Source of the DNA: a bacterium
Lineage (GTDB): Bacteria > Patescibacteriota > Saccharimonadia > Saccharimonadales > Saccharimonadaceae
Assembly (NCBI GenBank): GCA_030530825.1
Contig: JAUMUF010000001.1
Location: forward strand, 186,001 to 250,000
Direction of reading: 5' to 3'
Length of the DNA stretch: 64,000 nucleotides
Of this stretch, positions 8,419 to 50,004 are shown in pieces; positions within the stretch are counted from its first letter, which is position 1, and every line of letters begins with the position of its first letter. The translations under genes and the position numbers were made by a program. Below the pieces are notes generated by a model. The model was given only the letters and a program-made list of their open reading frames with translations. It was not told the origin of the DNA and did not search any database.

Positions 8419-8742
8419 TTATAATTGCGAAATTGCGATTTTATAGTGCTTTTTAATATCACGATAAAATGAAAGGGTGACAATGAGCAGGGGGATACCT
8501 ACAATAAAAATCGACAAAATAAAGAAAGAAAAAATGAGCTGGTACATAGCAAATCTGAAAAAGAAAAATAGAATTTTAAGCTTTACATATTCTGCGTGAT
8601 TTGAAGATTTTTCTTTTTCCAAAAATCCAGTATTTGGGGTGTTGGCGATTTTGGCAAGTTGTTGGGCTTGTGGGTTAGCAAAAGGTGCTTGCTTTTCCGC
8701 TTCAATGTTGCTGTTAAGTGGTTCGATAATTCTTTCGTTCAT
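8419..8742 (-). CDS. Small two-helix membrane protein (phage moron candidate)
   Basis: 107 residues: a polar N-terminal half (about 1-50) and two hydrophobic stretches (about 55-72 and 74-92) with a basic tail. Not recognised. Unlike the other phage genes it lacks a Shine-Dalgarno and has its own host-type promoter placing the ATG 6 nt after the -10. That suggests expression from the quiescent prophage, as for superinfection-exclusion or host-fitness morons; this is inference from promoter layout. It is the last gene before the operon terminator. Confidence 0.75.
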   Translation of the reverse strand: MNERIIEPLNSNIEAEKQAPFANPQAQQLAKIANTPNTGFLEKEKSSNHAEYVKLKILFFFFRFAMYQLIFSFFILSIFIVGIPLLIVTLSFYRDIKKHYKIAISQL

Positions 8743-8748
8743 GTTATT

Positions 8749-8777
8749 ATTTTAGCATTTTAGGGTTTGTTTTTCAA
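8749..8777 (-). promoter_or_regulatory. Promoter of the phage moron
   Basis: On the minus strand: TTGAAA (8772-8777), a 17-nt spacer, and TAAAAT (8749-8754) preceded by TGC. The start codon follows 6 nt later, so a leaderless mRNA is predicted. Confidence 0.75.
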
Positions 8778-8841
8778 TTGTGTTTATGTTTGGGGTTTAT
8801 TTTTAGAAAATTGTAAATCGACCGCACGCTCGTTTGGGCTT

Positions 8842-9792
8842 TTAAGAGTTAGCCCCACGGCGTGCTCGATTTGCGAAGTAGTCGGGATTTGTGCGAATTC
8901 GAAAGAATTCATCTGAAATGTGAATTTTTTTGATTGTGAGTAAAAAGGAGAAAAACGGAGCGTTTTGAGGGATTTCGAAGATTTCGTGATAATCGTAGTC
9001 ACGAGTTTTGAATTCTTGTGGTATAGGTGAGCGTTCTGAAACGATGTTTGGAAAAAGTTCGGGCTTGTTGAGATTGCGTGAAGACCAGTAACGCTTGGCG
9101 TTCGGTTCTGTTATTAGTTCTTTGGTGATATATTTTTTAATATAACTTGCCATTTTTGAGGTGTCACGAATTGGGGCGATTTCAGATCGACCGAGATTGT
9201 ATCGATTGATGAATTTTCTTTTTGTGTTTGGTTTTGGGTTTTTGATTTCTGAAATTGTAGCATAAGGGTTTTTGCGTGAATGGAAGTTGTCTGTGGGGTT
9301 GAGATAATTTTCGAGTAAGGCGTGAAAATGCCACGCTCCGTTTTTGTGGCGTTCTGGAACGATGAGGTATTTGAATTTTGAGCCGTGAGTTCGCTGATGA
9401 TTTACTTGTTCGGTGTTGAGCCATTGTTGAAGCAGGGCGGACATTTTTGCGAAGTTGTGGCGGTTTTGTTCGGTTTTGATTTTTGGGTTTTTGGCGTCGA
9501 AAGTGAAAGTCGCGAAGTGGGAAAAGTTATTTGATAGCACATAATCTGATATTTTAGTTTTTGTGCGATTGATCGATTTTTGAAGAGTGTCAATTTCGCT
9601 AGAGTTTTCTTCATTGGCGATACCTTGATTTTCTACACCGAAGTTTTGAACAACGAGTGGGCGTTTGTAGCGAATTATTTTAATGAAGTTAGGGTAAATT
9701 TTAGCATAATTATAAATTGTTTTATATTTTTTTCCGGTTTTATTAAGAATGCGTTCAGTTATGTTAGATGATTGCTTTCTTAAATCGTTCAT
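8842..9792 (-). CDS. HUH rolling-circle replication initiator (inovirus pII-like Rep)
   Basis: 316-residue endonuclease that would nick the double-stranded phage origin and stay covalently bound through tyrosine. Motif 1 is FATFTFDAKN (93-102). Motif 2, metal binding, is WHFHALL with H155 and H157. Motif 3 is YIKKYITKE with Y217 and Y221 plus K220, the two-tyrosine form seen in Rep_2/phage-type initiators. Start ATG has AAAGGAG upstream. The intergenic stretch before it (9793-9865) contains a strong hairpin that is a candidate origin structure. The C-terminal 80 residues are not assigned. Confidence 0.9.
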   Translation of the reverse strand: MNDLRKQSSNITERILNKTGKKYKTIYNYAKIYPNFIKIIRYKRPLVVQNFGVENQGIANEENSSEIDTLQKSINRTKTKISDYVLSNNFSHFATFTFDAKNPKIKTEQNRHNFAKMSALLQQWLNTEQVNHQRTHGSKFKYLIVPERHKNGAWHFHALLENYLNPTDNFHSRKNPYATISEIKNPKPNTKRKFINRYNLGRSEIAPIRDTSKMASYIKKYITKELITEPNAKRYWSSRNLNKPELFPNIVSERSPIPQEFKTRDYDYHEIFEIPQNAPFFSFLLTIKKIHISDEFFRIRTNPDYFANRARRGANS

Positions 9793-9819
9793 TTAATTTA
9801 CTCCTTTTGTCAGTTAAGT

Positions 9820-9862
9820 GTGGTCTATGACAAGGGGGTTCCGCGTGGCGGAACCCGACCAC
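9820..9862. other. Large hairpin upstream of rep (candidate origin structure)
   Basis: Perfect inner arms GGGTTCCGC (9836-9844) and GCGGAACCC (9848-9856) with a 3-nt loop, and outer arms GTGGTC (9820-9825) and GACCAC (9857-9862) with a 10-nt bulge on one side. Such single-stranded structures mark replication origins or packaging signals in filamentous phages. A terminator role on the plus strand (T-run after 9863) is the alternative. Confidence 0.65.
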
Positions 9863-9865
9863 TTT

Positions 9866-10156
9866 TTAATAATTATTGATGCGAGAGATATGGAAGTAAT
9901 CTCTGAATTCATCACCTTTATTATTAGTGAGAGTTCGCTTTGATGATGAGTAAACTACCATTGAGTTTCCACCCGTTAGAAGAGCAGGGGCGAAGTCGAA
10001 AAATTGGTTATCTTTGGCCATAATTCTATAATCATTGAAGATTTGAAAGAGGGCGTCTTTTGCCTCTTTTTTGGTATTAAATCGGGCGATTTCGCGACGA
10101 TTGCGAGTAATTATATATGAATATTTATAAATTCGTTGTAGTTGTATTGTGAACAT
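9866..10156 (-). CDS. Phage protein of unknown function (96 residues)
   Basis: Basic at the N-terminus (RIYKYSYIITRNRREIARF, about 8-26), with a helix-rich middle and no membrane segment or signal peptide. AAAGGA precedes the ATG. It lies between the assembly ATPase and Rep, a slot where inoviruses often carry small accessory or DNA-binding proteins. No family recognised. Confidence 0.75.
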   Translation of the reverse strand: MFTIQLQRIYKYSYIITRNRREIARFNTKKEAKDALFQIFNDYRIMAKDNQFFDFAPALLTGGNSMVVYSSSKRTLTNNKGDEFRDYFHISRINNY

Positions 10157-10180
10157 ATTTTCCTTTCGTGGGTTTGGGGT

Positions 10181-10218
10181 GATTTTGTCGCGGGGCGGTC
10201 GCCTATCGCGACAAAATC
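10181..10218. other. 12-bp perfect hairpin at the end of the Zot-like gene
   Basis: GATTTTGTCGCG (10181-10192) and CGCGACAAAATC (10207-10218) form a 12-bp perfect stem with a 14-nt loop. One arm encodes the last residues (ILSR) of the ATPase gene. There is no T-run on the minus strand, so a simple terminator is unlikely; an RNA-processing site, packaging signal or single-strand origin is possible. Confidence 0.6.
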
Positions 10219-10946
10219 TTTCCTTTTTTAATTGCTTTCTTATCTATCTGTATGGCGTTATGTTCTTCGAACTGTGCTTGACCGGAAACGACTTTTTGAA
10301 GTGTGTCGTACATATTGCGTAAGCGTTCGGAATGAAAGAACCAGCCATATTTAACAGGTTTGCCCACCAGTTCGCCAGAATAATCGGTTGTGAGTTTTTT
10401 GGCGTTGTATACTTTGTTGATTGTAAAAATGTTAGAGATCGTGTTACACATAATCAGGTAGTCTGATTGTTCACGGAAGGGCTTTGCCATACGCAAGAAC
10501 AATTGAGAAGTCCCTATAATACATTTTCTTTGCTTGCGTTGCTGTGAAATTTCCGTGAAGATATAGAGCGGAATGTTCTTGCTTTCGAGAGCGTTGAAGT
10601 ATGTGTGAATTTCATCAATTAAGTAAATCACGCCGAATTTATCGTTATTGACCGAAACGAGAAGTTTGTGAAGTTCTTCGAACTCTGAAAAGGTTATGAT
10701 TTTGTTTTTAAGGTCTGGTGGTGGTTTAATTTCAAGGTTGGTTACTAAAATCGCTTTGGGATATTTTAGTATAAGATTGTGAACATGCTTGACGGCTGAC
10801 AATGTTTTTCCTGAACCTTGAAATCCACAATACATAAAAAGACCTGTTTCTTTGAATAGTTCTTTATCTTTCGCCATCAAGCGGTTTGCTTTATAGCTAT
10901 CAAGATGAAAGCGAAATTCTTTTTTGAGTTGATTGAGGTATGACAT
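10203..10946 (-). CDS. Zot/pI-family phage assembly ATPase
   Basis: 247-residue P-loop ATPase that in filamentous phages drives extrusion of the coated ssDNA through the envelope. Walker A is GFQGSGKT (41-48) and Walker B is VIYLIDEIH (106-114), followed by the arginine/glutamine-rich QQRKQRK stretch typical of Zot. ATG 10946 is chosen for its AAGGAG site. The usual C-terminal transmembrane helix and periplasmic domain of M13 pI/Zot are absent; the protein ends in a lysine-rich soluble tail. That would fit a host with a single membrane and no secretin, but this is inference. Confidence 0.88.
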   Translation of the reverse strand: MSYLNQLKKEFRFHLDSYKANRLMAKDKELFKETGLFMYCGFQGSGKTLSAVKHVHNLILKYPKAILVTNLEIKPPPDLKNKIITFSEFEELHKLLVSVNNDKFGVIYLIDEIHTYFNALESKNIPLYIFTEISQQRKQRKCIIGTSQLFLRMAKPFREQSDYLIMCNTISNIFTINKVYNAKKLTTDYSGELVGKPVKYGWFFHSERLRNMYDTLQKVVSGQAQFEEHNAIQIDKKAIKKGKILSR

Positions 10947-10954
10947 TTTTCTCC

Positions 10955-11251
10955 TTATTTTTTCTGAATATTTATAAATGGAAGCTTTCCTAAAATCCAC
11001 CAAGCAAGAGAAGCCAGAATTTCAACAGGCATTAAGACGAACGAAAGTGTAAGTATAAACGACATCGCCTCATTTGATCCAAGAATGTATGAAAAGAAGC
11101 GAATAGCGGGCTGAATAATTGAAATAATCCAACCGAAAGAGGCGAGTAGGTTAAACCCACCAGATAAAATACCTGAAAATGTTGAAAATACAGGAAAAAT
11201 TGTAATTGAAAGCATGAAATTGACTAAATCTAAAATCCAAAGAATTATCAT
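10955..11251 (-). CDS. pVI-like minor coat membrane protein
   Basis: 98 residues, almost entirely hydrophobic, with three predicted membrane segments (about 3-25, 34-58, 64-90). Position between the pIII-like gene and the ATPase and the size equal gene VI of filamentous phages, whose product caps the virion and stays in the membrane during assembly. Its ATG overlaps the stop of the adsorption-protein gene (shared base at 11251). Assigned by position and hydropathy. Confidence 0.75.
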   Translation of the reverse strand: MIILWILDLVNFMLSITIFPVFSTFSGILSGGFNLLASFGWIISIIQPAIRFFSYILGSNEAMSFILTLSFVLMPVEILASLAWWILGKLPFINIQKK

Positions 11252-12450
11252 TATTTATCCTCCTTATGAGCCCATCGCTCCCAGACATAATAAGAACCAA
11301 AAAGAATAGGAATTACTTGAAGAATACGATTTATCGCCCAAAATCCAAAAGCGAACCATAGAAGATTGCGAGCGAGGAATATAAGAGGTTCAGGAACACT
11401 ACAAGCATCAAATTTCAAAATCTGCTTAAAGCTATCCCAAGAAGAGCTTGAAATTGCGAATTGTGAATCATAGCGACAGGAAGATTGAGCACTGACGCCA
11501 GTAAAGAAATTAAATTCAATATATCGAGTCAATTCACCGAGTGAATTTTTAGCTTGATTTGACATTGAATTAAATTTTGCTTGAAGTTCTGCTTGTTCTG
11601 GTATAAATATTTTCTTTACTATATCAATTATGAACTTACCGAGTTCGATGAAAAAGTTGACTATAAAATCAACAATTTTAGCTACACCTTCGAAAAGCCC
11701 AGAAAAAATTGATGATATACCATTTTTAAGATTTTCGAAAAATGAACCCGTCCAAGAAGCAAAAACCGACATACTGTCAAACATAGGGGCGAAGAAATCT
11801 TTAATGCCTTGAAGTATACCACCAAAAAATCCGGCATCTTGATTGTTGCTTGAATTTCCGCTATTGTTTGAGCTGTCTGGTACGGAAGTTGCTGGCTTTA
11901 TATTGAATTGGTTAAGCTTGTTGTTGGTGTCTGAATAGATAACAAAATAATCAGGGTCGTCTGTTGAGGTTATCTCTGCTTCGTAAGATGGGGCAGAGGG
12001 TTGGTTTGCGTAAAAAGAGCCGTTACCCTCCAAAAAACCGCGTTCTTTATTATAGGTTGATTGAGTATAATATCGAGCCTTTATTTTAATTGTATATCTT
12101 CCAGTATGTTTGTTGTAGGACAGGTAAGAGCCACAATCTGGTTGAGATTTGATTGGATATTTTCCGGTTTCTGGATTGTAGCTTTCGTAATCAAGATAGT
12201 CGCAAGAATAAGCGTAAACATTGAGAGTGTTTCTCTGTGAATACTCTTTTGTGTTATAAATCAAATAATGAACTGTTGGGTTGTGGTCTTCGCTTTGGAT
12301 AAAAGCACGGGCGAAAGATTGTCTTTCTTTTTCTGAAAGACCCTTAAAACTTCCGACCTCGTGAGCGAATGAAGTCGAAGATGAGAACAGTACAAGCAAG
12401 AATGAAAATAATACCGAAAATGTTGCCGAAGATTTGCTGAATTTCCACAT
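11251..12450 (-). CDS. pIII-like adsorption/minor coat protein
   Basis: 399 residues. Signal peptide at about 1-29 (hydrophobic core FSVLFSFLLVLF, then SFA/HE). A polar, tyrosine-rich outer domain with four cysteines in total, a Ser/Asn-rich linker (about 190-208), a glycine/phenylalanine-rich amphipathic stretch, and a C-terminal hydrophobic anchor (about 355-385) with a charged tail. This is the architecture of filamentous-phage pIII, which binds the receptor or pilus and anchors the virion tip. The receptor cannot be read from sequence. AGAGG precedes the start. Confidence 0.8.
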   Translation of the reverse strand: MWKFSKSSATFSVLFSFLLVLFSSSTSFAHEVGSFKGLSEKERQSFARAFIQSEDHNPTVHYLIYNTKEYSQRNTLNVYAYSCDYLDYESYNPETGKYPIKSQPDCGSYLSYNKHTGRYTIKIKARYYTQSTYNKERGFLEGNGSFYANQPSAPSYEAEITSTDDPDYFVIYSDTNNKLNQFNIKPATSVPDSSNNSGNSSNNQDAGFFGGILQGIKDFFAPMFDSMSVFASWTGSFFENLKNGISSIFSGLFEGVAKIVDFIVNFFIELGKFIIDIVKKIFIPEQAELQAKFNSMSNQAKNSLGELTRYIEFNFFTGVSAQSSCRYDSQFAISSSSWDSFKQILKFDACSVPEPLIFLARNLLWFAFGFWAINRILQVIPILFGSYYVWERWAHKEDK

Positions 12451-12452
12451 CT

Positions 12453-12590
12453 TTACCTCTTTGACCTTGCGTTAAATTTTGAAATTATATAAAAGGAAAT
12501 AATGGTTATAAGAATTATAGCGAGCCAAGTTATGTCATCGAACTTAACGAATTTATTGTGAAGTGGCGTAAAATAATAAACATCGTTCAT
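12453..12590 (-). CDS. 45-residue phage membrane protein
   Basis: Begins MNDVYYFTPLHNKF, one hydrophobic helix (about 22-38, WLAIILITIISFYIISKF) and a basic tail. Only 2 nt separate its stop from the pIII-like ATG, and it starts 2 nt after the previous gene. Size and place resemble the pVII/pIX end-cap proteins of filamentous phages. Very weak ribosome site; probably translated by coupling. Confidence 0.7.
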   Translation of the reverse strand: MNDVYYFTPLHNKFVKFDDITWLAIILITIISFYIISKFNARSKR

Positions 12591-12592
12591 AT

Positions 12593-12748
12593 CTACAACC
12601 TATCTCTAAAAAGAATGTTCATAAGCATTGAGAAGAAAAGGTGAACGCCTGCCAAAACTCCAATGATTGGAAGCAGGAAAATAAAACCTTTACTGAATAG
12701 ATCGAGCAGGGTTGAAATAACTTCTGATGATGTGACATTTTGAACCAT
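12593..12748 (-). CDS. 51-residue coat-like phage membrane protein
   Basis: A short polar amphipathic N-terminus (MVQNVTSSEVISTLLDLF), one hydrophobic segment (about 22-45) and a basic end (FRDRL). Its leader repeats the AACAAAAAGGATTAAA ribosome-binding block used before both major-coat-like genes. It follows the coat terminator, so it is either read-through or separately promoted. It could be a minor coat protein. Confidence 0.75.
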   Translation of the reverse strand: MVQNVTSSEVISTLLDLFSKGFIFLLPIIGVLAGVHLFFSMLMNILFRDRL

Positions 12749-12776
12749 AATTTAATCCTTTTTGTTGAGTTGATAT

Positions 12777-12807
12777 TGAAAAGGGTGGGGCGGTGGAACG
12801 CCCCACC
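12777..12807 (-). terminator. Strong terminator after the major-coat-like gene
   Basis: Arms GGTGGGGCG (12784-12792) and CGCCCCACC (12799-12807), 9 bp perfect and GC-rich, followed on the minus strand by CTTTTC. A terminator directly behind the major coat gene is a hallmark of filamentous phage operons, where it secures high coat mRNA levels. Confidence 0.85.
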
Positions 12808-12813
12808 GTGCGG

Positions 12814-12978
12814 TTAAACGCGACCGCTCTTTCCGCGGTTGATGACCTTTCGGACAATGTTGATACCTACAACGGTTACCAAGATTGGAGCAACGAAAGT
12901 CAAACCGGCGGTGAAGTTGGTTGTGATCGCCGAAACAAGTTGAGTGGCGAGACCTTCTGGAATAGTAATTGCTGACAT
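12814..12978 (-). CDS. Major-coat-like protein (pVIII-type), minus-strand module
   Basis: 54 residues: amphipathic N-terminal helix (MSAITIPEGLATQLVSAI), one membrane segment (about 25-42, LTFVAPILVTVVGINIV) and a basic C-terminus (RKVINRGKSGRV) that would contact DNA. No signal peptide is visible, as in the Pf3 coat protein. Strong AAGGA in a leader shared with the plus-strand coat-like gene, and a strong terminator immediately after. The layout is a textbook filamentous coat gene. Confidence 0.85.
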   Translation of the reverse strand: MSAITIPEGLATQLVSAITTNFTAGLTFVAPILVTVVGINIVRKVINRGKSGRV

Positions 12979-13013
12979 AACTATTTAATCCTTTTTGTTA
13001 AGTTAATAATTTT

Positions 13014-13030
13014 TTTGTTCGCTTTTTGTT
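13014..13030 (-). repeat. 17-nt leader element, copy 2
   Basis: AACAAAAAGCGAACAAA on the minus strand, 36 nt before the coat ATG. It is part of a homologous stretch of about 90 nt shared with the plus-strand module (13700-13787). Candidate RNA operator or transcript-stability element. Confidence 0.7.
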
Positions 13031-13063
13031 TGTTTTTGCGATTGGGGAAGAATAGGCCGACCT

Positions 13064-13291
13064 TTACATATCAAATTCTTCCTCCAAGTCAATTTTTTCT
13101 TTGTTTGTGTGTTTGATTGCGTGAGCAAGACCGAAGACATCTTTTTTATCTACGAAATAGTCAATTTTAAGACCATTTTTGAAATGTAAAGTTAAAATGT
13201 GAAATTCAGTGTTAGTTTTTTGCGAAGTTCCAGTTCGAACTGAAAGTCGAGCAAGTGTTGATATAATGTTGTCGTTTGTTAGATTTTTCAT
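13064..13291 (-). CDS. Small basic phage protein, ssDNA-binding candidate (minus module)
   Basis: 75 residues from ATG 13291, chosen for its TAAGGAG site. Alternating hydrophobic/polar strands (FHILTLHFKNGLKIDYFV, about 31-48) and lysines suggest a small beta protein, as expected for a gene V-type ssDNA-binding protein that sequesters phage ssDNA and often represses translation. No diagnostic motif is present, so this is a positional inference. It resembles the plus-strand 13469 protein in its strand pattern and in its last residues (DM versus TM) and downstream leader. Confidence 0.7.
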   Translation of the reverse strand: MKNLTNDNIISTLARLSVRTGTSQKTNTEFHILTLHFKNGLKIDYFVDKKDVFGLAHAIKHTNKEKIDLEEEFDM

Positions 13292-13332
13292 TGAAATCTC
13301 CTTATAATTATATTTAGTTGTTTTATGGTTAG

Positions 13333-13424
13333 ATATTAGCATATAAGATTTATAAAATCAATATATGTCGCAAAAGATATATTGTGCGACATATCTTGTT
13401 TTTCTTTTTCACATATGCTAATAT
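13333..13424. promoter_or_regulatory. Divergent phage promoters with a central palindromic operator
   Basis: Minus promoter: TTGATT (13356-13361), 17 nt, TAATAT (13333-13338) preceded by TGC. Plus promoter: TTGTTT (13396-13401), 17 nt, TAATAT (13419-13424) preceded by TGC. Between the two -35 boxes lies a perfect inverted repeat: ATATGTCGCA (13363-13372) and TGCGACATAT (13385-13394) with a 12-nt spacer. One bound protein would cover both -35 boxes. Confidence 0.85.
13364..13383 (+). repeat. 20-nt direct repeat, right copy (candidate attR)
   Basis: TATGTCGCAAAAGATATATT, 19 of 20 identical to 8286-8305 in the same orientation. It is embedded in the palindromic operator, so attachment and operator roles cannot be separated by reading alone. 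Confidence 0.5.
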
Positions 13425-13468
13425 CGAATTGTAATAAAAAATAATAACAATTCGAAAGGAATTTAATA

Positions 13469-13708
13469 ATGAAAAACCACCCTATCAACGTAATGCCTAA
13501 AATTCACACTGCTACAATCGCAGATAAAGAATTTACGAATCCAGAAACGAATCAGGTTGTTCAATACTCGGTTCTTGAACTTGGTCTTAAACTTGATGGC
13601 GAAATTCAGACTATCGCTTTCAATCTTTCTAAAAAATCAAATATGAAACTTTTGATTCTTGCGTCTGAAAATAAAAACTGGCTAAACGAGGAAGATAGCA
13701 CTATGTAG
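13469..13708 (+). CDS. Small phage protein, ssDNA-binding candidate (plus module)
   Basis: 79 residues; ATG has GAAAGGA upstream. The region YSVLELGLKLDGEIQTIAFNL (about 29-49) gives an alternating strand pattern similar to the minus-strand 13064 protein, and both genes end in ATG plus stop followed by homologous leaders. Probably a diverged duplicate. Function unknown; a nucleic-acid-binding role is inferred from gene order. Confidence 0.7.
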   Translation: MKNHPINVMPKIHTATIADKEFTNPETNQVVQYSVLELGLKLDGEIQTIAFNLSKKSNMKLLILASENKNWLNEEDSTM

Positions 13709-13737
13709 CACGGTCGAAATCTTCCCAAACAAACGCA

Positions 13738-13754
13738 AACAAAAAGCGAACAAA
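13738..13754 (+). repeat. 17-nt leader element, copy 3
   Basis: AACAAAAAGCGAACAAA on the plus strand, 33 nt before the second coat-like ATG. Mirror image of copy 2 about the central operator. Confidence 0.7.
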
Positions 13755-13787
13755 AATTACTAAACTAACAAAAAGGATTAAAGATTT

Positions 13788-13973
13788 ATGTTGGAAACTT
13801 TTGGTTCATCTGCTCAATCAATTTTCCCAAGCGACACCGCAACTAAGTTGATTGAAGGCTTGACTGGCGTTATTGGTTCAAATATGCCAATTATCATTGC
13901 CCTTCTCGGCTTCACTCTTGGTGTTGGTTTGGCTTTCAAACTTCTCAAGAAGTTCTCGAAAGTTAAGGCTTAA
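13788..13973 (+). CDS. Second coat-like protein, plus-strand module
   Basis: 61 residues: amphipathic N-terminus (MLETFGSSAQSIF to about 30), a hydrophobic glycine-rich segment (about 33-52, MPIIIALLGFTLGVGLAF) and a basic end (KLLKKFSKVKA). Same design as the minus-strand coat-like protein but different sequence. The leader AACAAAAAGGATTAAAG before ATG is nearly identical to that of the minus-strand gene. Could be an alternative major coat, a coat of a second phage remnant, or a membrane-active decoy. Confidence 0.8.
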   Translation: MLETFGSSAQSIFPSDTATKLIEGLTGVIGSNMPIIIALLGFTLGVGLAFKLLKKFSKVKA

Positions 13974-14032
13974 GCCTCACGACCCGAGCAAGTCGTTAAA
14001 CTGCTCTTCCACTTTTCGATATTAACTTAAAT

Positions 14033-24515: not shown

Positions 24516-25685
24516 TCACGCGCGTGGCTTGAAGTCGAGGAGCTTAGCGCGATAATACTCGTATTGCTTGCGGCGCGCGGTAATCTCGGCTGGGAGTCCT
24601 GTCGAAATGCTTGAAGTCAGCGCCTCGAATTTATCCAAAATCTCCACAATCTCACGTTGTTTTTCGAGGGGTGGGAGGGGGATTTTGATTTTCGAATATT
24701 TCGAAATCCACTGTCGAGAATGTTCTGCGCCCACGTCAAACTTCACTGTCTGCATCATGTAGTACACGAACCGAAACGATAAGTCATCCGTATTTGGTTG
24801 TAATATTTTCATTGCTGAAGATTTTATCTTAAACAGGAAGTCTACCCAATGGTTTGACGTTGTGAAATCGTCAAAGATTATTACGGGATTTTCTTTGCTT
24901 GCTGGAAAAATTCCGCTAATTTCGTTAGTCTTCCCTAGGATGAATGTTTTTCCTGCTGTTAATACTGGGGTTGTAAAAGAATTGTTGAACTCCTTTGATT
25001 TCACGATGTATTTTGTGGGCTGCTGGTATTTAAGAATCTCCCCCAGCGTCGTCCACCGTACCCCCTGCGGACTGGTGTTAAAGGTTAGGAGCTGGTTGCG
25101 ATAGTGCTCGTACTGCTTTTTGCGAGCTTCCAGCTCCGCTTCCAGCTCCGCTTCCAGAGATGTGAATTTATCGAGAATTCGAACAATCTCCTCTTGTACT
25201 TCAAGTGGTGGGACGGGGATTTGGAGTGATTTAATTGTCGATACGTTCAGGCTGGTTAAAGCTCCTTGACCCATGTTTTTGATTCGAACGTAATTATGTG
25301 ACAGGTAGTAATACAAAAACTTGTAATTTATTATACCCTCGTTTGTTTCCATCGCGCAGACCGATTGATTCGCTGATAGCTCGATCATATTAACTGCGGA
25401 GCGAGCGACGGTTGCGCCAGTCATTGCGAGCAGGACGCTTTTTGGTCTTATCATTTTTGCGGACGAACCTTGAAGTCCTGCTTCTGTTATTTTTCTTTCC
25501 GTTGAAGATATTTTATTAAAATTTACTTCACCAGAACGAAGCCAAGGAATTTCTCCATCGTAGAAATCTTTTCTCGAAGTGGACGGCGTTCCGCCCGCGA
25601 ATACTCTTTCACATAATTCGCCAACACTTTTAAACTCCACCCCCTCCGGACAAAGCTGGGCGATTAGATTTTCGAGTTTAGTCAT
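24516..25685 (-). CDS. hsdS: Type I specificity subunit HsdS
   Basis: 389 residues with two target-recognition domains, each ending in a conserved helix: VPPLEVQEEIVRILDKF with RKKQYEHYRNQLL, and LPPLEKQREIVEILDKF with RRKQYEYYRAKLL. The first helix carries a tandem LEAE repeat encoded by 12-bp units, comparable to the TAEL repeats of EcoR124. ATG overlaps the Bro-N gene stop (ATGA). The DNA target cannot be read from sequence. Confidence 0.95.
   Translation of the reverse strand: MTKLENLIAQLCPEGVEFKSVGELCERVFAGGTPSTSRKDFYDGEIPWLRSGEVNFNKISSTERKITEAGLQGSSAKMIRPKSVLLAMTGATVARSAVNMIELSANQSVCAMETNEGIINYKFLYYYLSHNYVRIKNMGQGALTSLNVSTIKSLQIPVPPLEVQEEIVRILDKFTSLEAELEAELEARKKQYEHYRNQLLTFNTSPQGVRWTTLGEILKYQQPTKYIVKSKEFNNSFTTPVLTAGKTFILGKTNEISGIFPASKENPVIIFDDFTTSNHWVDFLFKIKSSAMKILQPNTDDLSFRFVYYMMQTVKFDVGAEHSRQWISKYSKIKIPLPPLEKQREIVEILDKFEALTSSISTGLPAEITARRKQYEYYRAKLLDFKPRA
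25127..25157 (-). repeat. 12-bp tandem repeat in hsdS spacer helix
   Basis: Plus-strand unit CTTCCAGCTCCG at 25127-25138 and 25139-25150, with a further 7 nt at 25151-25157; it encodes LEAE repeats. In-frame copy-number change would lengthen or shorten the helix between the two recognition domains. Confidence 0.9.
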
Positions 25686-26527
25686 TGCGCGCCTCCTTTC
25701 TTTAAGCTTTTGGATTTTCTGCCAGCGATTTGGTTGGCGTTGAGCGGGCTTATTACGCTTGTGCCTGTTTGATCTTCGATATTTTCGCGAGCCTGCCGTG
25801 CGATTTCTCCGCCGCTTTGAGCGATCTTCTTTTGCGCTTGATATCCGTGTGGATTTTGTCGGCGGGAGATCTCGGTGGCGGAGGTTTCTGCGAGGGTGTT
25901 AAGGGCGAGTTCGAGGCTTGTCATATTGTCGCGTAGGCTTTGCTTTTTTAGGCCTTTAAATGCTCTATATTCTTTGGCTGTTTTTCCGCTCCAGCCTTTG
26001 AGTAGTTCATTTGTAAGCGCGGCAAATTGACCGTTTTTGGTGACGCCTGTACGTTTAAGCTCGTCGGTGTATTCTTTTCTGAATTGGATTGATTGTAGAC
26101 GGGTATTGATCCATTCCTCGCTGTAGCCGAGGTTTTGGTAGTTTTCCATTGCTCGCTGAATTGCAAGTTCTGGGTCTTGGGTTTCATTGAGGAAGGTACT
26201 ACCGACTTCTGCAAGCCAAATCTTAAAAGGTTCAGCTTTTTTGGATGGAATTGATTGGATTAGACGGAGAATGTCGCGGGTTGTACCGGCGAGAACATTA
26301 CGCTTAATTCCGTTAATGTTGCGCATTGGTTTCTGGGGACAATTTGTCCCAAGGTAGGTTGCAAGTTCTGCGTCGCGTTTTCGCAGTTTTCGAAGATAGT
26401 CCGTAGGATTAGTGCTTTCGGATAGGACCGCTACGACGTCAACAATAGAAAAAAACCACTCTTCTTGCTGTTCATCCCAAATGCGTCGAACGTTTTTTTC
26501 TTCAAAAACTTGAATATCGCTATTCAT
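25682..26527 (-). CDS. Bro-N/DinD-like protein inside the R-M operon
   Basis: 281 residues from ATG 26527, overlapping the hsdM end by 8 nt. The N-terminal part (about 1-110) has the Bro-N/DinD pattern RRIWDEQQEEWFFSIVDVV followed by YLRKLRKRD and GIKRNVLAGTTRDILRLIQSI. The rest (KTAKEYRAFKGLKKQSLRDNMT, then TAETSATEISRRQNPHG) is typical of DNA-damage-inducible protein D homologues. Such genes often accompany hsdM/hsdS; a regulatory or anti-repressor role is inferred only. Confidence 0.8.
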   Translation of the reverse strand: MNSDIQVFEEKNVRRIWDEQQEEWFFSIVDVVAVLSESTNPTDYLRKLRKRDAELATYLGTNCPQKPMRNINGIKRNVLAGTTRDILRLIQSIPSKKAEPFKIWLAEVGSTFLNETQDPELAIQRAMENYQNLGYSEEWINTRLQSIQFRKEYTDELKRTGVTKNGQFAALTNELLKGWSGKTAKEYRAFKGLKKQSLRDNMTSLELALNTLAETSATEISRRQNPHGYQAQKKIAQSGGEIARQARENIEDQTGTSVISPLNANQIAGRKSKSLKKGGAQ

Positions 26528-28085
26528 TGCGCGCCTCAATTTCTGCCACGATCGCGTCGATCTCTGAGCGGAGTTGGCTTTGGTTGGCGACAATTTGTGA
26601 GATCTCGGCGTTGAGTTGGGTGATGTCGATTTTTTCGGTTTTATCCTCTTGTTCTACATAGTTGGAAACGCTCAAATTAAAGTCATTCTCGGCAATTTCT
26701 TGGCTATCGACGAGGCGCGAGAAATGGGTGGTCTCGGTGCGATTCAGAACGGTTTGGTAGATTTTTTCGATATTTGCCTGAGTGAGCTTGTTGGAGTTGG
26801 TCACGGATACGAACTCATTTGAAGCGTCGACAAAGAGAGTTTTATCGTCGGACTTGTTCTTTTTGAGAGTGATAATACAGGTGGCGATGCTTGTGCCAAA
26901 GAACAGGTTGCTCGGAAGTTGAATGATCGAGTCGATGTAGTTGTTCTCGATCAAATATTGGCGGATCTTTTGCTCCGCTCCGCCACGGTAAAGCACGCCT
27001 GGAAACTCGACAATTGCCGCCGTTCCGTTGGTTGCGAGCCAGCTCAAAATATGCATCGTGAACGCGAGATCCGCCTTGGACGTTGGCGCCAAGACGCCCG
27101 CCGGCGCAAATCGTGGGTCGTTAATGAGGAGTGGGTTATTTTTACCGTCCCATTTGATTGAATACGGCGGATTGGAAACGATCGCCTCGAAAGGCTCATC
27201 GCCCCAATGTTTTGGCTCGATCAAAGTATCGCCGAGTGCGATGTCAAAGTCGCTCGGATTGATGTCGTGCAGAAACATATTGATGCGCGCCAAGTTATAT
27301 GTTGTGATGTTGATTTCTTGCCCGAAAAATCCGTTCTTAACATTTTCTTTGCCTAAGATTTTAGCAAACTTAAGGAGAAGCGAGCCTGAGCCTGCTGCTG
27401 GGTCATAAACCTTGTTGACGGATTTTTTGCCGTCGGCGGCAAGGAGAGCGAGCAACTCGGAGATTTCTTGCGGAGTGTAATATTCTCCACCAGATTTTCC
27501 TGCGTTGGCGGCATACATACCCATCAAAAATTCATACGCATCACCAAAGACGTCTATTGTGTTGTCTTGGTAGTTTCCGAGCTTCATCTCTCCGATGGCG
27601 TTCATGATTTTTTGGAGCGTTTGGTTGCGTTTTTCGACCGTCGCGCCGAGCTTGTTCGAATTTGTATCAACATCGTCGAAAAGCCCTTTAATGTCATCCT
27701 CAAACTCTGTCCCGTTGGCGGAATTTTCGATATTTTTGAAGACATTGGCGATTGTGATGTTTAGGTCTTCGTCATGCTTGGCTCGCTCGCGGACATTATC
27801 GAAAAGATCGCTTGGCTTGATAAAGAAGCCTTTTGCTTTTACAACAAAGTCTTTTTGCGTGAGTGATTTTTCGTCATCAAAAAATCGATAATCGAAGTCC
27901 GTCGCTCCTGCCTCGTGCTGAAGTTTATTGATGTAGCTGGTGATATTTTCCGAAATAAATCGGTAAAAAAGAAAACCTAAAATATAATTTTTAAAATCCC
28001 AACCGTCGACGCTGCCGCGCAAGTCCTCGGCGATTCGCCAAATTGTGCGGTGTAATTCCGCGCGCTCAATCTCTTTATTATTCAT
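26520..28085 (-). CDS. hsdM: Type I DNA methyltransferase subunit HsdM
   Basis: 521 residues. N-terminal helical HsdM domain, SAM-binding motif I DPAAGSGS (228-235) and catalytic NPPY (305-308), characteristic of N6-adenine methylation. First gene of the operon hsdM, Bro-N, hsdS, hsdR, ATPase. AAGGAG precedes the ATG, with a clear promoter upstream. Confidence 0.96.
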   Translation of the reverse strand: MNNKEIERAELHRTIWRIAEDLRGSVDGWDFKNYILGFLFYRFISENITSYINKLQHEAGATDFDYRFFDDEKSLTQKDFVVKAKGFFIKPSDLFDNVRERAKHDEDLNITIANVFKNIENSANGTEFEDDIKGLFDDVDTNSNKLGATVEKRNQTLQKIMNAIGEMKLGNYQDNTIDVFGDAYEFLMGMYAANAGKSGGEYYTPQEISELLALLAADGKKSVNKVYDPAAGSGSLLLKFAKILGKENVKNGFFGQEINITTYNLARINMFLHDINPSDFDIALGDTLIEPKHWGDEPFEAIVSNPPYSIKWDGKNNPLLINDPRFAPAGVLAPTSKADLAFTMHILSWLATNGTAAIVEFPGVLYRGGAEQKIRQYLIENNYIDSIIQLPSNLFFGTSIATCIITLKKNKSDDKTLFVDASNEFVSVTNSNKLTQANIEKIYQTVLNRTETTHFSRLVDSQEIAENDFNLSVSNYVEQEDKTEKIDITQLNAEISQIVANQSQLRSEIDAIVAEIEARNE

Positions 28086-29860: not shown

Positions 29861-30367
29861 TTAATTGGTTGCTTTTCGAAATTCCAAATCCTCGTTGGTA
29901 AGTCCGCCAGCAATTGCATTGACCGGGGAAAGCAATGTGTCCACGATTTGACCGATGAGTTGGTCTTTTCCTGGGAGTTCTGAGAGAGTTAGAACAGTCT
30001 CAGTGTCCATTGCAGCGCCATCTGCGAAGGCGCCAACGAGTTTTAATTCTGGATGATTCTTGGCAAATTTACCAAGAACTTGCGCTGCGGCGATCTCGTC
30101 CTCTGTTGAAATCGCATAGACCAACTGACCTTTAAGAGCAGAAGTGTCAGCGTCTTTCAAAGAGTCGATTCCGCTCATCGCAACTCGGACAAGGCGGTTT
30201 TTAACAACCTTGATTTGAACGCCAGCCTCGCGAGCCTCTTTTCGAAGTTCTTGAAGATCTTTAACCGTCAAGCCTTGATATTCGGCAAAAGCGGTCATCT
30301 TGGCGTTTTTCAAAGCGTCGCTTAATTCAGCAACCAATTGGTTCTTTTTATCGCGTGATAATGCCAT
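29861..30367 (-). CDS. rplJ: 50S ribosomal protein L10
   Basis: 168 residues. Begins MALSRDKKNQLVAELSD, has YQGLTVKDLQELRKEAREAGVQIKVVKNRL and the C-terminal helix that binds L7/L12 dimers. AAAAGGAG before ATG. Preceded by a long structured leader that matches the L10 autoregulatory element. Confidence 0.97.
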   Translation of the reverse strand: MALSRDKKNQLVAELSDALKNAKMTAFAEYQGLTVKDLQELRKEAREAGVQIKVVKNRLVRVAMSGIDSLKDADTSALKGQLVYAISTEDEIAAAQVLGKFAKNHPELKLVGAFADGAAMDTETVLTLSELPGKDQLIGQIVDTLLSPVNAIAGGLTNEDLEFRKATN

Positions 30368-30374
30368 AAAAACT

Positions 30375-30520
30375 CCTTTTTTGGTTAATATTTTGACCTA
30401 ATTTTTAAGTTTCTTTTTTGCGAAAATCCTCCCGCAAAACGCCGCCAAAACAAGATGTATTTCCTCGGTAGCATGATTAAATTTCTTTCGAAATCGCTAC
30501 TGTCTTTGGCAACTGCTTCT
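30375..30520 (-). promoter_or_regulatory. L10 leader (autoregulatory RNA) of rplJL
   Basis: Leader of about 150 nt on the minus strand with AAAGACAGTAGCGA, then TTTAATCATGCTACCGAGG; pairing of GTAGC with GCTAC and the CCGAGG block (30463-30468) match the conserved L10-binding leader of bacterial rplJ mRNAs. A second part, TTTTGCGGGAGGATTTTCGCAAAA (about 30410-30435), forms another stem. Its promoter is TTGCTT (30544-30549), 17 nt, TAAAAT (30521-30526) preceded by TGA. Confidence 0.75.
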
Positions 30521-30561
30521 ATTTTATCATAAAACACCGCTAAAAGCAAGGATTTTGATAT

Positions 30562-30588
30562 AAAAGAAAACCCGCACGATTGGCGGGT
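30562..30588 (-). terminator. Terminator of the 30610 gene
   Basis: Minus strand: ACCCGCC, loop AATCGT, GCGGGTT, then TTCTTTTAT. Confidence 0.75.
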
Positions 30589-30609
30589 CTGGCAAAGGCT
30601 TACCTTCTT

Positions 30610-31242
30610 TTATCGGGCGGTGCGATATACTCTCCCGTCCCGCTTCTCCTTTTCCTTCCAGAAACTTTCGTTGCCGGTAATTCGAAAGTCCTCTCGGCGT
30701 GGAGTGATCGAGATCGGGTTTCTCTTGTCGATGTATTTGAACGGGATCAACCTATCCTTATACATTCTATCAAAAATCTCTATCAGTCCGCAACCTGTAG
30801 CTTTGCGGATCCTCTCAGGGCTCGGCAGGTTGTCGTTGATTTTAAGATGGCTTGATGTTGGGAACGTCTCTTCACCCGTCAGTTCAAATCTTTTAATTAT
30901 CCACTCGGCCAGCGTTTGGATGATTTCTTCCTCCGTGTCCCAAGTTTTTCTGCGAGGATCATTCTTTATTGTCTCGAACTGAATCTCTTCGCCAAAAAAC
31001 TCGATGGCCAGTCAGCGAGGCTCGGCTACATCTTTGAATGCGCAGGACTCTCCCCCGTTAAATAGCCATCTGGGTACTTTATTGACCCTGAAGCTATTCG
31101 CTGAAGTTATTATTCTTTCGAAGTGGTTTGAGCCTTCGAGGTAAGCCCTCAAAAGTTTCACCTGCTTCTCGTTGAGCTCTGGGTGACTGTTGAGAAGATC
31201 GTTGAATCTTTCTTCGAATTGCGAAATTGTCAAAAGTGCCAT
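30610..31242 (-). pseudogene. Orphan gene interrupted by one in-frame TGA
   Basis: Reading starts at ATG 31242 with TAAGGAGGTG and a good promoter (TTGACT, 17 nt, TAAAAT after TGC). Codon 77 is TGA (31014-31012), but the same frame stays open and coding-like for 133 further codons to TAA 30610, with a terminator after it. Around the stop the protein would read AEPR-x-LAIEFFGEEIQ, so a TGG-to-TGA change (Trp) is the simplest guess. TGA is an ordinary stop elsewhere here, so a nonsense mutation, read-through or a base error are the options. Not a recognised family. Confidence 0.7.
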
Positions 31243-31355
31243 CTGGGCACCTCCTTATAAAAGTAGAATTTAAGACAAGATATTTAGCCTTTTTGGGAAG
31301 GTTCGACATCTTGAATGCTTTTTATATTTTAGCATAATATGCGTCAAGAGTCAAG

Positions 31356-31381
31356 AAAACCGCTTCGAATTGAAGCGGTTC
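31356..31381 (-). terminator. Terminator of the 31396 gene
   Basis: AACCGCTTC (31358-31366) and GAAGCGGTT (31372-31380), then TTTTCTT on the minus strand. Confidence 0.8.
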
Positions 31382-31395
31382 TCGATTTTCTATGG

Positions 31396-31794
31396 TTAAA
31401 ATTCGAAATCAACGCCGGTTTTAGGAAGCTCCGCTGGAACGGGCGTGGTTTGGTTGGTGTTGCCCGTGGATTGCGATTGGTTTGTTGTGCTTGAGTTGGC
31501 GGAATTTACTCCGCTCTCTGTTTGGCTTTTCTCGCCGTTTTTGGTGTCGGTTGAGTTATTTGTCGACTCGCTCTTGGCTTCTTCTGATTTTTTGCTAGAA
31601 TTTTGGCTTGAAGGATTTTCTGATTTTTGTGAAGATTTGTCCTCATCTTCAATTTTTATATCGCTTGTGCTTTGGTTGTTTTGTGGTTTAGTATTGTTGC
31701 CAAAAAAGTGTGTCCAAAGTGCCCATCCAATGAAAATAAAGGTGAAAATCACCAAAATAATTGCTATAAACCTAAAAAATCTCTCTTTACTCAT
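31396..31794 (-). CDS. Membrane-anchored Ser/Thr/Asn-rich surface protein
   Basis: 132 residues: short basic start, one hydrophobic helix (about 9-30, FIAIILVIFTFIFIGWALW), then a low-complexity tail rich in S, N, T, Q, E and K ending with PVPAELPKTGVDFEF. The LPKTG sequence (about 124-128) matches a sortase motif, but no hydrophobic anchor follows it, so sorting is doubtful. ATG lies 6 nt after TGGTAAAAT with no Shine-Dalgarno: leaderless type. Function unknown. Confidence 0.7.
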   Translation of the reverse strand: MSKERFFRFIAIILVIFTFIFIGWALWTHFFGNNTKPQNNQSTSDIKIEDEDKSSQKSENPSSQNSSKKSEEAKSESTNNSTDTKNGEKSQTESGVNSANSSTTNQSQSTGNTNQTTPVPAELPKTGVDFEF

Positions 31795-31835
31795 AACTTG
31801 ATTTTACCATATTTTCAAAATAAAAGCAAATAAAA

Positions 31836-31858
31836 ACACCCGCTATTGAAGCGAGTGT
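31836..31858 (-). terminator. Terminator of the 31865 gene
   Basis: ACACCCGCT and AGCGAGTGT (one mismatch) with a 5-nt loop, then TTTTTATTT on the minus strand. Confidence 0.7.
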
Positions 31859-31864
31859 AGAAAT

Positions 31865-32197
31865 TTACGATGCCTTTTGAGCTTTTACCAATTCTTTCTG
31901 GATGAAGACAACTCCCGTTTTTGAGCATTCGTCAATCGTCCAGAAATTTTGCCCCAGATAGAAAGTGTGGATTACGGAAGTTCCGAGATTTTTCTTTGAG
32001 TATTTTCTGTCGCGACTCAGCATCTGAGCGTTTCTGGCGATCTCATCGATAGTCTGTTTCGAGATTGACCCGAAGCCATCCGCGTCAATCACTCTGAGCG
32101 TCGCCGTAGAGTTTCCGCCGATGATTGTGGCGAGTTTACTTTGTAAGGCTTTTTCGAAAGAGTCGAGTGGACGAGCTGTAAAGTTATTAAAAGGCAT
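31865..32197 (-). CDS. Orphan protein of unknown function (110 residues)
   Basis: No signal peptide or membrane segment. Ends with WTIDECSKTGVVFIQKELVKAQKAS. GGAGGA before ATG; promoter TTGACA, 17 nt, TAAAAT after TGC, then a leader of about 65 nt with a GGCAAATTCCAG hairpin region. Own terminator. Stand-alone gene next to rplA; family not recognised. Confidence 0.75.
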   Translation of the reverse strand: MPFNNFTARPLDSFEKALQSKLATIIGGNSTATLRVIDADGFGSISKQTIDEIARNAQMLSRDRKYSKKNLGTSVIHTFYLGQNFWTIDECSKTGVVFIQKELVKAQKAS

Positions 32198-32301
32198 ATT
32201 TTCCTCCGTGGCTGTAAATTTTCAAGTCTGGAATTTGCCAGATTTGATGAGCCAATGTTTTATATTTTAGCAGAAATGTTATAATTTGTCAAGAGGACTT
32301 C

Positions 32302-32330
32302 AAGGACTTTTCGAATTTCGAAAAGTCCTT
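32302..32330. repeat. 13-bp-arm palindrome upstream of the 31865 gene
   Basis: AAGGACTTTTCGA (32302-32314) and TCGAAAAGTCCTT (32318-32330) with a 3-nt centre. No T-run follows at once; it lies between the rplA terminator and the next promoter. Could be a second terminator stem or a protein-binding site. Confidence 0.65.
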
Positions 32331-32371
32331 GCGTGAACTCTGCAGAAAATTCAAAATTATAAAACTTTCGC

Positions 32372-32416
32372 CAGAAATAAAATCCCGCCCTGCTTTACGC
32401 GAGAGCGGAGATTTTG
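32372..32416 (-). terminator. Terminator of rplA
   Basis: AAAATC-CCGC paired with GCGG-GATTTT with a one-base bulge; TTTTATTTC follows on the minus strand. Confidence 0.6.
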
Positions 32417-32435
32417 AGTTCGAAGATTTTCGAAA

Positions 32436-33449
32436 TTAAGCGATTGGGTTTTCGACCTTGATGCTTGGACCTTGTGAAGTTGCTACAGCAACAGATTTCA
32501 CGTAAGCGCCTTTGAGCGAAGATGGCTTTTGCGCAGCAAGGCTATCGAAGAACGCCTTGGCGTTTTCAGCCAATTTTTCACCGCCGAAGGAAACTTTTCC
32601 GACAGAAAGGTGAACAATTCCTTGCTTGTCAACGCGGTATTCAACTTTACCAGCCTTGGCTTCAGATACAGCCTTAGCAACATCTGCGGCAACGGTACCA
32701 GCCTTTGGATTTGGCATCAAGCCTCGTGGCCCAAGAAGGCGAGCGTATTTACCAAGTTTTGGCATGTAAGCAGGTGTGGCAATAAGCACGTCGAAGTCGA
32801 TTGTGCCTTTGTCGAGTTGCTTCAAGAATTCTTCATCACCGATGATGTTGGCGCCAGCGGTTTTGGCTGCTGAATGCTCAGATTCTGGAGCAAAGACGGC
32901 AACTTTAACATCTTTACCAGTTCCGTTTGGAAGAACCACGGTGGTGCGGATGTTTTGGTCTGCTTGTCGTGGGTCAACGCCAAGTTTAACGTGGATTTCA
33001 ACAGAAGCGTCGAATTTGCTTGGATTTGTCTCAGTTGCGAGCGCGAGAGCGTCGTTCAAAGCGTAAACTTTGTCTTTTTCAACTTTAGCGAAGGCTGCTT
33101 GGTATTTTTTACCGCGGCGTTCGAGGCGTGGTCGAGTTACAGGTTTTGGACCTTTTGCGACAACGGCTTCGTTTTCGCCCTGAGCAGAAGTATCGCCAGC
33201 GGCTTTTCTTGCTTCTTTTTCAAGTTTTTCTGCCACTTCTTCAGCGTGTTTTTTGCTGCGTTTACCAGATTTTGCGAATTTTTCTTCCGCAACTTCTTCT
33301 GCGACTTCCGCAGTTTCAACTTCTGCTTCAACTTTTAGAGCGTCAGCGTTTTCGATCGCTTCGTTAATTTGAGCGATGGTCATTTTTTCAGAAACTTCGA
33401 GTCCTAATGCTCGTGCTTCTTCAATAAGGTCGGCTTTCTTTTTTGCCAT
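32436..33449 (-). CDS. rplA: 50S ribosomal protein L1 with long N-terminal extension
   Basis: 337 residues versus about 230 usually. Residues from about 108 ([19 protein letters not shown]) are normal L1, including the [16 protein letters not shown] and [15 protein letters not shown] blocks. The first 107 residues are extra: a SAP/HeH-like helical unit ([19 protein letters not shown], then [12 protein letters not shown], about 5-36) followed by a charged, alanine/glutamate/lysine-rich linker. ATG 33449 is preferred (AAGGAA upstream). L1 binds 23S rRNA and its own mRNA; the extension could add nucleic-acid or protein contacts. Confidence 0.95.
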
Positions 33450-33540
33450 AAATTCCTTTCTGTGGTGATAGCGGTCTTGCGACCTCCCAACATTGATTAA
33501 TATACCCTGATATTTTAGCATAAAAAAATTGAAAAGTCAA
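33450..33540 (-). promoter_or_regulatory. rplA promoter and structured leader
   Basis: TTGACT (33535-33540), 17-nt spacer, TAAAAT (33512-33517) after TGC. The leader holds a GGTC-GCAA-GACC hairpin with a GNRA loop (33473-33484) preceded by GGGAG; L1 feedback binding is plausible but unproven. Confidence 0.65.
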
Positions 33541-49086: not shown

Positions 49087-50004
49087 TCATTTTTGAAGAT
49101 TATTCTCTATACGTTCATATATGGTTTTTAGATTTTCTGATAGATCGCTTTCCGGTTTATTGTTTATGAGGAAATTTAAGGTTTCTAGCCTCGGCCAATT
49201 AATTACAGCCCCCCATACCTGACTATTACTTATAGTGTATTTAGCTATATTCTCCATGTCGCTATAGGATATAGAGTCTATTCTACTTAGCAAAAAGAAA
49301 AGTCTGTCTGTTTCGTAAAATGACCCACTGGTTGCCAAATTTCTAATTGCTATTTCTTTAAGCTCTTTTTGACTGCTCTTTAAGAGTTCATCTATAAAAT
49401 CCTTGGCACTTTTATTGAATGCGATTTTGAAGCTTAATATATCTAGGTTTGGTAGTGCGTAGCATTCTCTCCTAAGGAATTCTTGATTTTTTATATAATC
49501 GTTGTCATTGGTTAATATATAGAAGCAGCCCTTGCATTCTCTCGCTTCTATAAACTCCAAAAAAGACTCCCAGTTCACCTCATCTCCAATAGTGTGATTA
49601 CTTTTACCTGGAGGATTTCCTAGTATGTGTCTTGTTTTAGCCTTCTCTATAGATGTAGTGGTTAATTTGGTCCGCCCATAGGATAGTTTACTGAATATAT
49701 TATCTATTCTTGATATTTTTTCCGATAAGGCATCACCTATTTTTCTATTTATTTCAGCTAGTTCTTTCGGTTTTTCCCCTAGGATTAACTTAACCTTACT
49801 TGCATCTATACGATAGCAGTTGATTAAATTTTCTTTTAGTATATTTTGATTTCGTATAAACTCTTCGAATATCTGCTGGTTTATAAATACTTCTATATAA
49901 CCTATCTCTACTAAGCTTAGGATTATATCGTAATGATCCAGGTTTACGTCCACTGAATACATATTTAATAGTATATTGGTGTCTATAAAGATATAGTTCT
50001 TCAT
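49087..50004 (-). CDS. PIN-domain ribonuclease (DUF4935-like)
   Basis: 305 residues. FIDTNILLN (D8), a central acidic GDEVNWESFLEF and ILTNDNDYIKN supply the PIN catalytic carboxylates; a helical C-terminus of about 120 residues follows. Probably an RNase of toxin or defence type; no antitoxin-like partner adjoins it. It starts 3 nt after mnmA. It is AT-richer, with many ATA and AGG codons unlike mnmA and the helicase gene, suggesting acquisition. Confidence 0.8.
   Translation of the reverse strand: MKNYIFIDTNILLNMYSVDVNLDHYDIILSLVEIGYIEVFINQQIFEEFIRNQNILKENLINCYRIDASKVKLILGEKPKELAEINRKIGDALSEKISRIDNIFSKLSYGRTKLTTTSIEKAKTRHILGNPPGKSNHTIGDEVNWESFLEFIEARECKGCFYILTNDNDYIKNQEFLRRECYALPNLDILSFKIAFNKSAKDFIDELLKSSQKELKEIAIRNLATSGSFYETDRLFFLLSRIDSISYSDMENIAKYTISNSQVWGAVINWPRLETLNFLINNKPESDLSENLKTIYERIENNLQK

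What the first reader, a model, noticed from the sequence alone, without database searches (positions are those of the whole stretch)
30610..31242. In-frame TGA at codon 77 of a well-built orphan gene
The gene has a strong promoter, TAAGGAGGTG, terminator and 133 open codons after the TGA in the same frame. Elsewhere TGA terminates genes normally (36319, 17469, 25682), so global recoding is excluded. Trp replacement (TGG to TGA), programmed read-through, or recent loss are possible.
Basis: seen in the sequence. Interest (0 to 1): 0.55.

Follow-up and report, generated by a model that had tools for sequence, protein, structure and literature searches.

The report
Accessory gene cut by premature stop
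A small, otherwise well-formed gene of unknown family in a tiny-genome bacterium carries one stop codon part-way through; it is most likely an ordinary recently broken gene, or an assembly error, with no sign of special machinery that would read through the stop.

Summary
On the minus strand, ATG 31242 to TGA 31012-31014 gives 76 codons; the same frame then stays open for 133 codons to TAA at 30610-30612. A promoter-like site and ribosome-binding site precede it, and a terminator-like hairpin follows the second stop, not the first. No in-frame ATG/GTG/TTG follows the TGA until codon 160.

The genome reads TGA as stop: RF2 is present, none of 39 tRNA matches has a UCA anticodon, no tRNA-Sec match reaches its cut-off, and tRNA-Trp has a normal five-pair anticodon stem. 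No hairpin stands out at the stop. No full-length relative was found, so conservation across the stop could not be tested.

The gene sits in a variable slot between rplA and the rplJ leader; in one congener the slot holds split remains of two other genes.

Best reading: an accessory gene recently cut by a nonsense mutation, with at most basal read-through. An assembly error is the main rival. The downstream half weakly resembles a domain of related genomes. Ordinary.

The parts
31012..31242 (-). First open part: ATG, 76 codons, ending at the in-frame TGA (31012-31014)
30610..31011 (-). Continuation of the same frame: 133 open codons and TAA; no ATG/GTG/TTG before codon 160
31326..31354 (-). 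Sigma-70-like promoter site TTGACT-17-TAAAAT
   Evidence: consensus match only
31243..31262 (-). Ribosome-binding stretch TATAAGGAGGTG before the ATG
30568..30590 (-). Terminator-like hairpin with T-run after the second stop
30551..32434 (.). Variable slot between rplA (32436-33521) and the rplJ leader (30358-30527), not shared with congeners G093 and G108

Best explanation
This is an accessory gene, probably horizontally acquired (inferred), in the variable slot between rplA and rplJ of a very small bacterial genome. It originally encoded a protein of about 210 residues (inferred). A single nonsense change at codon 77 truncated it, recently enough that no other in-frame damage accumulated (the single disruption is shown; the recency is inferred). 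Transcription probably still runs from its own promoter to the terminator after the second stop (inferred from consensus sites). Translation would give a 76-residue fragment plus, at most, traces of full-length product by basal UGA misreading (inferred). The fragment would lack the downstream half, which may carry a small domain of DNA-binding type (weak similarity; the DNA-binding function is recalled from similar repeat families, not tested).
For: One disruption only, with 133 open codons after it. GC by codon position is similar on both sides: 0.49/0.36/0.53 before, 0.45/0.39/0.57 after. A terminator-like site on this strand follows the second stop and none in the scan lies between the two stops. 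No in-frame ATG/GTG/TTG after the TGA until codon 160. Standard code: RF2 over its cut-off, each of the 39 RF00005 matches resolved and no UCA anticodon among them, no tRNA-Sec over the cut-off. The four congeners have no match to the protein; in G093 and G108, which hold both flanks in one piece, and in G067 the slot holds other sequence. In G067 that slot holds MYG1 (PF03690) and class I aldolase (PF00274) sequence, each split over separate ORFs, so broken genes occur there. The downstream part scores 18.6 bits and the whole protein 17.6 against a profile of 12 related-genome domains; the best of 1000 shuffles scores 9.4.
Against: No homologue spans codon 77, so loss of function is not shown by comparison. 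The codon-usage signal is weak and no better than one antisense frame. The domain match was found by searching 295 genomes at E 5e-4 for one genome, not significant after correction; the 12-domain profile does not contain the query, but its members were picked with an alignment that did. A profile of HNH_repeat-type repeats scores the query no better than shuffles. The split genes of G067 could themselves be assembly errors. Raw reads are unavailable, so the TGA itself is not verified.
Confidence: 0.68

Rival explanations
1. Sequence or assembly error: the gene is intact in the cell and the TGA is a miscall or a minority variant in the assembly.
For: The only disruption is one codon; all other signals are intact. 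The genome is a 3-contig assembly whose reads were not seen.
Against: The assembly is rated 99.5% complete with 0.01 contamination; nothing at the site itself, such as a repeat or a second copy in the genome (one search finds one copy), invites an error.
Confidence: 0.14
2. A natural 76-residue gene ends at the TGA, and the open frame behind it is chance.
For: Codon usage downstream is only weakly coding-like, and an antisense frame scores about the same. No relative extends across the stop.
Against: 133 open codons are seen in 0.26% of random sequences of this composition and in 21 of 2390 out-of-frame windows; the terminator-like site lies behind the second stop; the downstream part, not the upstream part, resembles a domain of related genomes.
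Confidence: 0.1
3. Tolerated or regulated read-through: the UGA is leaky and some full-length protein is made and used.
For: The frame downstream is undamaged. PMC7918605 (abstract and first part of Results read) reports in-frame stops in bacterial genes under purifying selection.
Against: No UCA tRNA, no tRNA-Sec over its cut-off, a tRNA-Trp without known suppressor features, RF2 present, no hairpin at the stop. No conservation can be shown.
Confidence: 0.08

Closest known systems
Nonsense pseudogenes of bacterial accessory genes
   Same: A single in-frame stop, signals at both ends still present, patchy distribution, split genes in the same slot of a related species
   Different: No intact relative was found to prove the original full length
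Bacterial in-frame stops with suspected read-through (PMC7918605; abstract and first part of the Results section read)
   Same: An in-frame stop inside an otherwise open gene
   Different: That work rests on orthologous stops shared between species with dN/dS below 1; here there is no orthologue to measure
UGA-to-Trp decoding by a tRNA-Trp(CCA) with a 4-pair anticodon stem (PMC13092985; passages read)
   Same: Would allow UGA decoding without a UCA anticodon
   Different: The tRNA-Trp here has a 5-pair stem and keeps A9 and G24
Small repeat-domain accessory proteins of related genomes (loci L003, L083-L092) and Pfam HNH_repeat PF18780
   Same: Residues about 97-150 share conserved positions with the G273 domain
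   Different: Not a scored member of PF18780: no Pfam match at E up to 1, no match in the own genome, own profile score within the range of shuffles

Membership tests
Nonsense pseudogene | Premature in-frame stop in an otherwise open frame | tested here: met
Nonsense pseudogene | Intact homologue extending across the stop | tested here: inconclusive
   No full-length relative: 2 of 295 family, 1 of 5 genus, 3 of 379 phylum, 2 of 392 class and 2 of 392 order genomes match, self included in each; the non-self matches are partial and weak; the sets overlap
Nonsense pseudogene | Little or no full-length product | not testable with these tools
   Needs ribosome profiling or proteomics
Selenoprotein gene | tRNA-Sec in the genome | tested here: not met
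   14 matches, none over the cut-off; one search lists ordinary tRNAs at 13 of the 14 places, and the weakest (C1:257877-257979) overlaps one with a different end
Selenoprotein gene | Stem-loop just after the UGA | tested here: not met
   z 0.42; 129 of 200 shuffles fold at least as well
Genome-wide TGA recoding (code 4 or 25) | Cognate tRNA for UGA, and TGA not used as a stop | tested here: not met
   No UCA anticodon among 39 tRNA matches; RF2 present; TGA ends other frames
UGA suppression by altered tRNA-Trp | 4-pair anticodon stem, or changes at positions 9 or 24 | tested here: not met
   positions numbered by hand on the ARAGORN drawing; features as named in passages of PMC13092985
HNH_repeat (PF18780) | Match to the family model | tested here: not met
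   a home-made profile of 14 repeats scores the query at 1.7 bits, below several shuffles

The most novel reading that the evidence does not exclude
The TGA is a maintained leaky stop that makes one gene yield a 76-residue protein and a rare 210-residue form carrying an extra domain, in a genome with a normal code and no dedicated recoding machinery found.
Probability: 0.06. Interest if true: 0.45.

Novelty: new member of a known kind. Interest (0 to 1): 0.1.

Why it matters
It matters little beyond annotation: it adds a likely example of gene decay in the variable rplA-rplJ slot of a very small genome. If read-through were shown it would be a test case for leaky UGA in such genomes, but nothing found here points to it.

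Tried and rejected
Recoding as Gly (code 25) or Trp (code 4) genome-wide: rejected. A gene borrowed from a TGA=Gly lineage was considered when one search returned a phylum match with two TGAs inside (G622, E 1e-4); rejected because the match lies inside an 801-residue frame (UvrA-like by eye) in a different reading, so it is taken as chance. The G354 match (E 0.004) lies in a 152-residue ORF and was not followed further. Independent translation of the downstream half: no ATG/GTG/TTG before codon 160. Structure prediction of the read-through protein (TGA read as Trp, no alignment) gave mean pLDDT 38.5 and was not used; no fold search was made. Family libraries: no Pfam or NCBIfam match at E up to 1, one PHROGs match at E 0.19; no PDB match up to E 1. 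No relative in phages (DNA none, downstream half only, one match at E 0.6), plasmids, viral contigs or genome contigs; these contig scans find close relatives only. HNH_repeat membership: rejected. In some searches the decoy set held the downstream part of the gene itself (dec222), recognised; its score is a self score, not a decoy. The composition test counted stop codons as zero and so inflated frames with stops; one search is the corrected run and one search is not used. In one search pre-TGA codons scored below zero and the downstream frame 0.072, inside the low end of the training genes (0.026 to 0.463).

Full report
What is there. On the minus strand a frame starts with ATG at 31242, behind TATAAGGAGGTG, and meets TGA at 31012-31014 as codon 77. 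The same frame stays open for 133 codons to TAA at 30610-30612. A promoter-like site lies at 31354-31326 and a terminator-like hairpin with a T-run at 30590-30568; the stretch with the hairpin folds better than shuffles (z -2.94). The terminator stands behind the second stop, as expected if the transcription unit was built for the longer frame. The same scan finds 6 promoter-like and 7 terminator-like sites in 2 kb against 2.6 and 2.8 expected, so each site alone is weak.

Is the downstream frame more than chance? Random sequence with the same dinucleotide content stays open for 133 codons in 0.26% of trials, and 21 of 2390 out-of-frame windows of window genes are open for that length. Of 55 gene-like frames in a hand-made list, six run further past their stop; by coordinates five of these run in frame into a neighbouring gene and one runs antisense to a gene. 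GC by codon position is 0.49/0.36/0.53 before the TGA and 0.45/0.39/0.57 after it. Codon usage is only weakly informative: codons 78-210 score z 2.19 (34 of 3000 random open frames reach the score), codons 1-76 z 0.40, one antisense frame with one stop z 2.23, rplJ z 5.19. The low codon-usage score, like that of some neighbours (31865-32197 z 1.64; 49087-50004 z 0.95), fits an acquired gene but is not proof.

Can the stop be read? The genome has an RF2 over the family cut-off. Each of the 39 tRNA matches in the genome was resolved and none has a UCA anticodon; a tRNA too unusual for the Rfam tRNA model would be missed. No tRNA-Sec match reaches the cut-off, and one search lists ordinary tRNAs at 13 of the 14 places, the last one overlapping. 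The tRNA-Trp has anticodon CCA, a five-pair anticodon stem, A9 and G24 (positions numbered by hand), so it lacks the suppressor features that passages of PMC13092985 name. The region around the TGA folds no better than shuffles (z 0.42). After the TGA there is no in-frame ATG, GTG or TTG until codon 160, so apart from the last 51 codons the downstream half could be made only by read-through or from an unusual start.

Relatives. No full-length relative was found. Genome searches matched, self included, 2 of 295 family genomes, 1 of 5 genus genomes, 3 of 379 phylum genomes, 2 of 392 class genomes and 2 of 392 order genomes; these sets overlap. The G273 match (residues 97-150, 35% identity, E 5e-4 for one genome) is not significant after correction for the number of genomes. 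The G622 match is taken as chance; the G354 match (E 0.004) was not followed. Scans of genome contigs, viral contigs, phages and plasmids gave nothing convincing; one phage record matched the downstream half at E 0.6.

A hint about the lost half. The G273 match lies in two neighbouring proteins that share a small domain. A search with these two domains and the query matched 16 of 394 family genomes, self and G273 included. A profile built from 12 of these domains, two from G273 and ten from other genomes, without the query, scores the downstream half at 18.6 bits and the whole protein at 17.6; the best of 1000 shuffles scores 9.4 and the best unrelated frame among the decoys 6.8. The control is not fully independent, because the ten were found with an alignment that included the query. 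A profile of 14 HNH_repeat-type repeats scores the query at 1.7 bits, below several shuffles. I take this as a suggestion that the downstream half was a protein domain, perhaps DNA-binding (function recalled from similar repeats, not tested).

Surroundings. The gene lies between rplA and rplJ, together with two other small ORFs (31396-31794, 31865-32197). DNA similarity to congeners G093 and G108 stops at about 32435 or 32405 on the rplA side and at about 30550 or 30414 on the rplJ side, and in between they hold other sequence. An L10-leader-like element just under its gathering score (41.8 against 44 bits) lies at 30358-30527. In congener G067 the slot holds MYG1 and class I aldolase sequence, each split over separate ORFs. 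The fourth congener, G010, is cut by a contig end. So the slot takes up accessory genes and split ones occur there, although those of G067 could themselves be assembly errors.

Conclusion. The first-stage observation is right and its list of options was sensible; recent loss is the best supported. I put 0.68 on a real nonsense-interrupted accessory gene, 0.14 on a sequence error, 0.10 on a natural short gene followed by a chance open frame, and 0.08 on tolerated read-through. PMC7918605 (abstract and first part of the Results section read) argues that in-frame stops in bacterial genes are common and not always inactivating, but its evidence is conservation between species, which could not be shown here. 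No call named the organism; the genome is 687 kb in 3 contigs and rated 99.5% complete, and a Saccharibacteria-like (Patescibacteria) identity is my own inference from gene content and genome size.

Noticed in passing
window 8419-14000: Inovirus-like (filamentous phage) gene group: a rolling-circle replication initiator (8842-9792; PF23343 E 1.8e-12, phrog_3419 E 8.6e-16), a weak Zot/protein-I-like morphogenesis protein (10203-11003; phrog_197 E 2.7e-6, Pfam Zot below its cut-off), a 399-residue protein and several 50-60-residue coat-like membrane peptides (coat-like by eye only, no family match)..
   Followed up: partly
window 30551-32434; L014, L016, L068 (relatives): The interval between rplA and the rplJ leader is a variable slot in this genus: different ORFs without Pfam matches in different species, and split MYG1 and class I aldolase pieces in one.
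   Followed up: partly
window 25682-26593: A Bro-N/anti-repressor-like protein (PF02498 E 1.5e-7; phrog_15286 E 1.7e-104) lies between what look by eye like type I restriction hsdM (26520-28085) and hsdS (24516-25685) genes..
   Followed up: no
L003 and L083-L092: Related genomes, 14 of 15 non-self matches from one genus, carry accessory proteins sharing a small domain of about 55 residues; the two proteins scanned have no Pfam match over a cut-off.
   Followed up: partly
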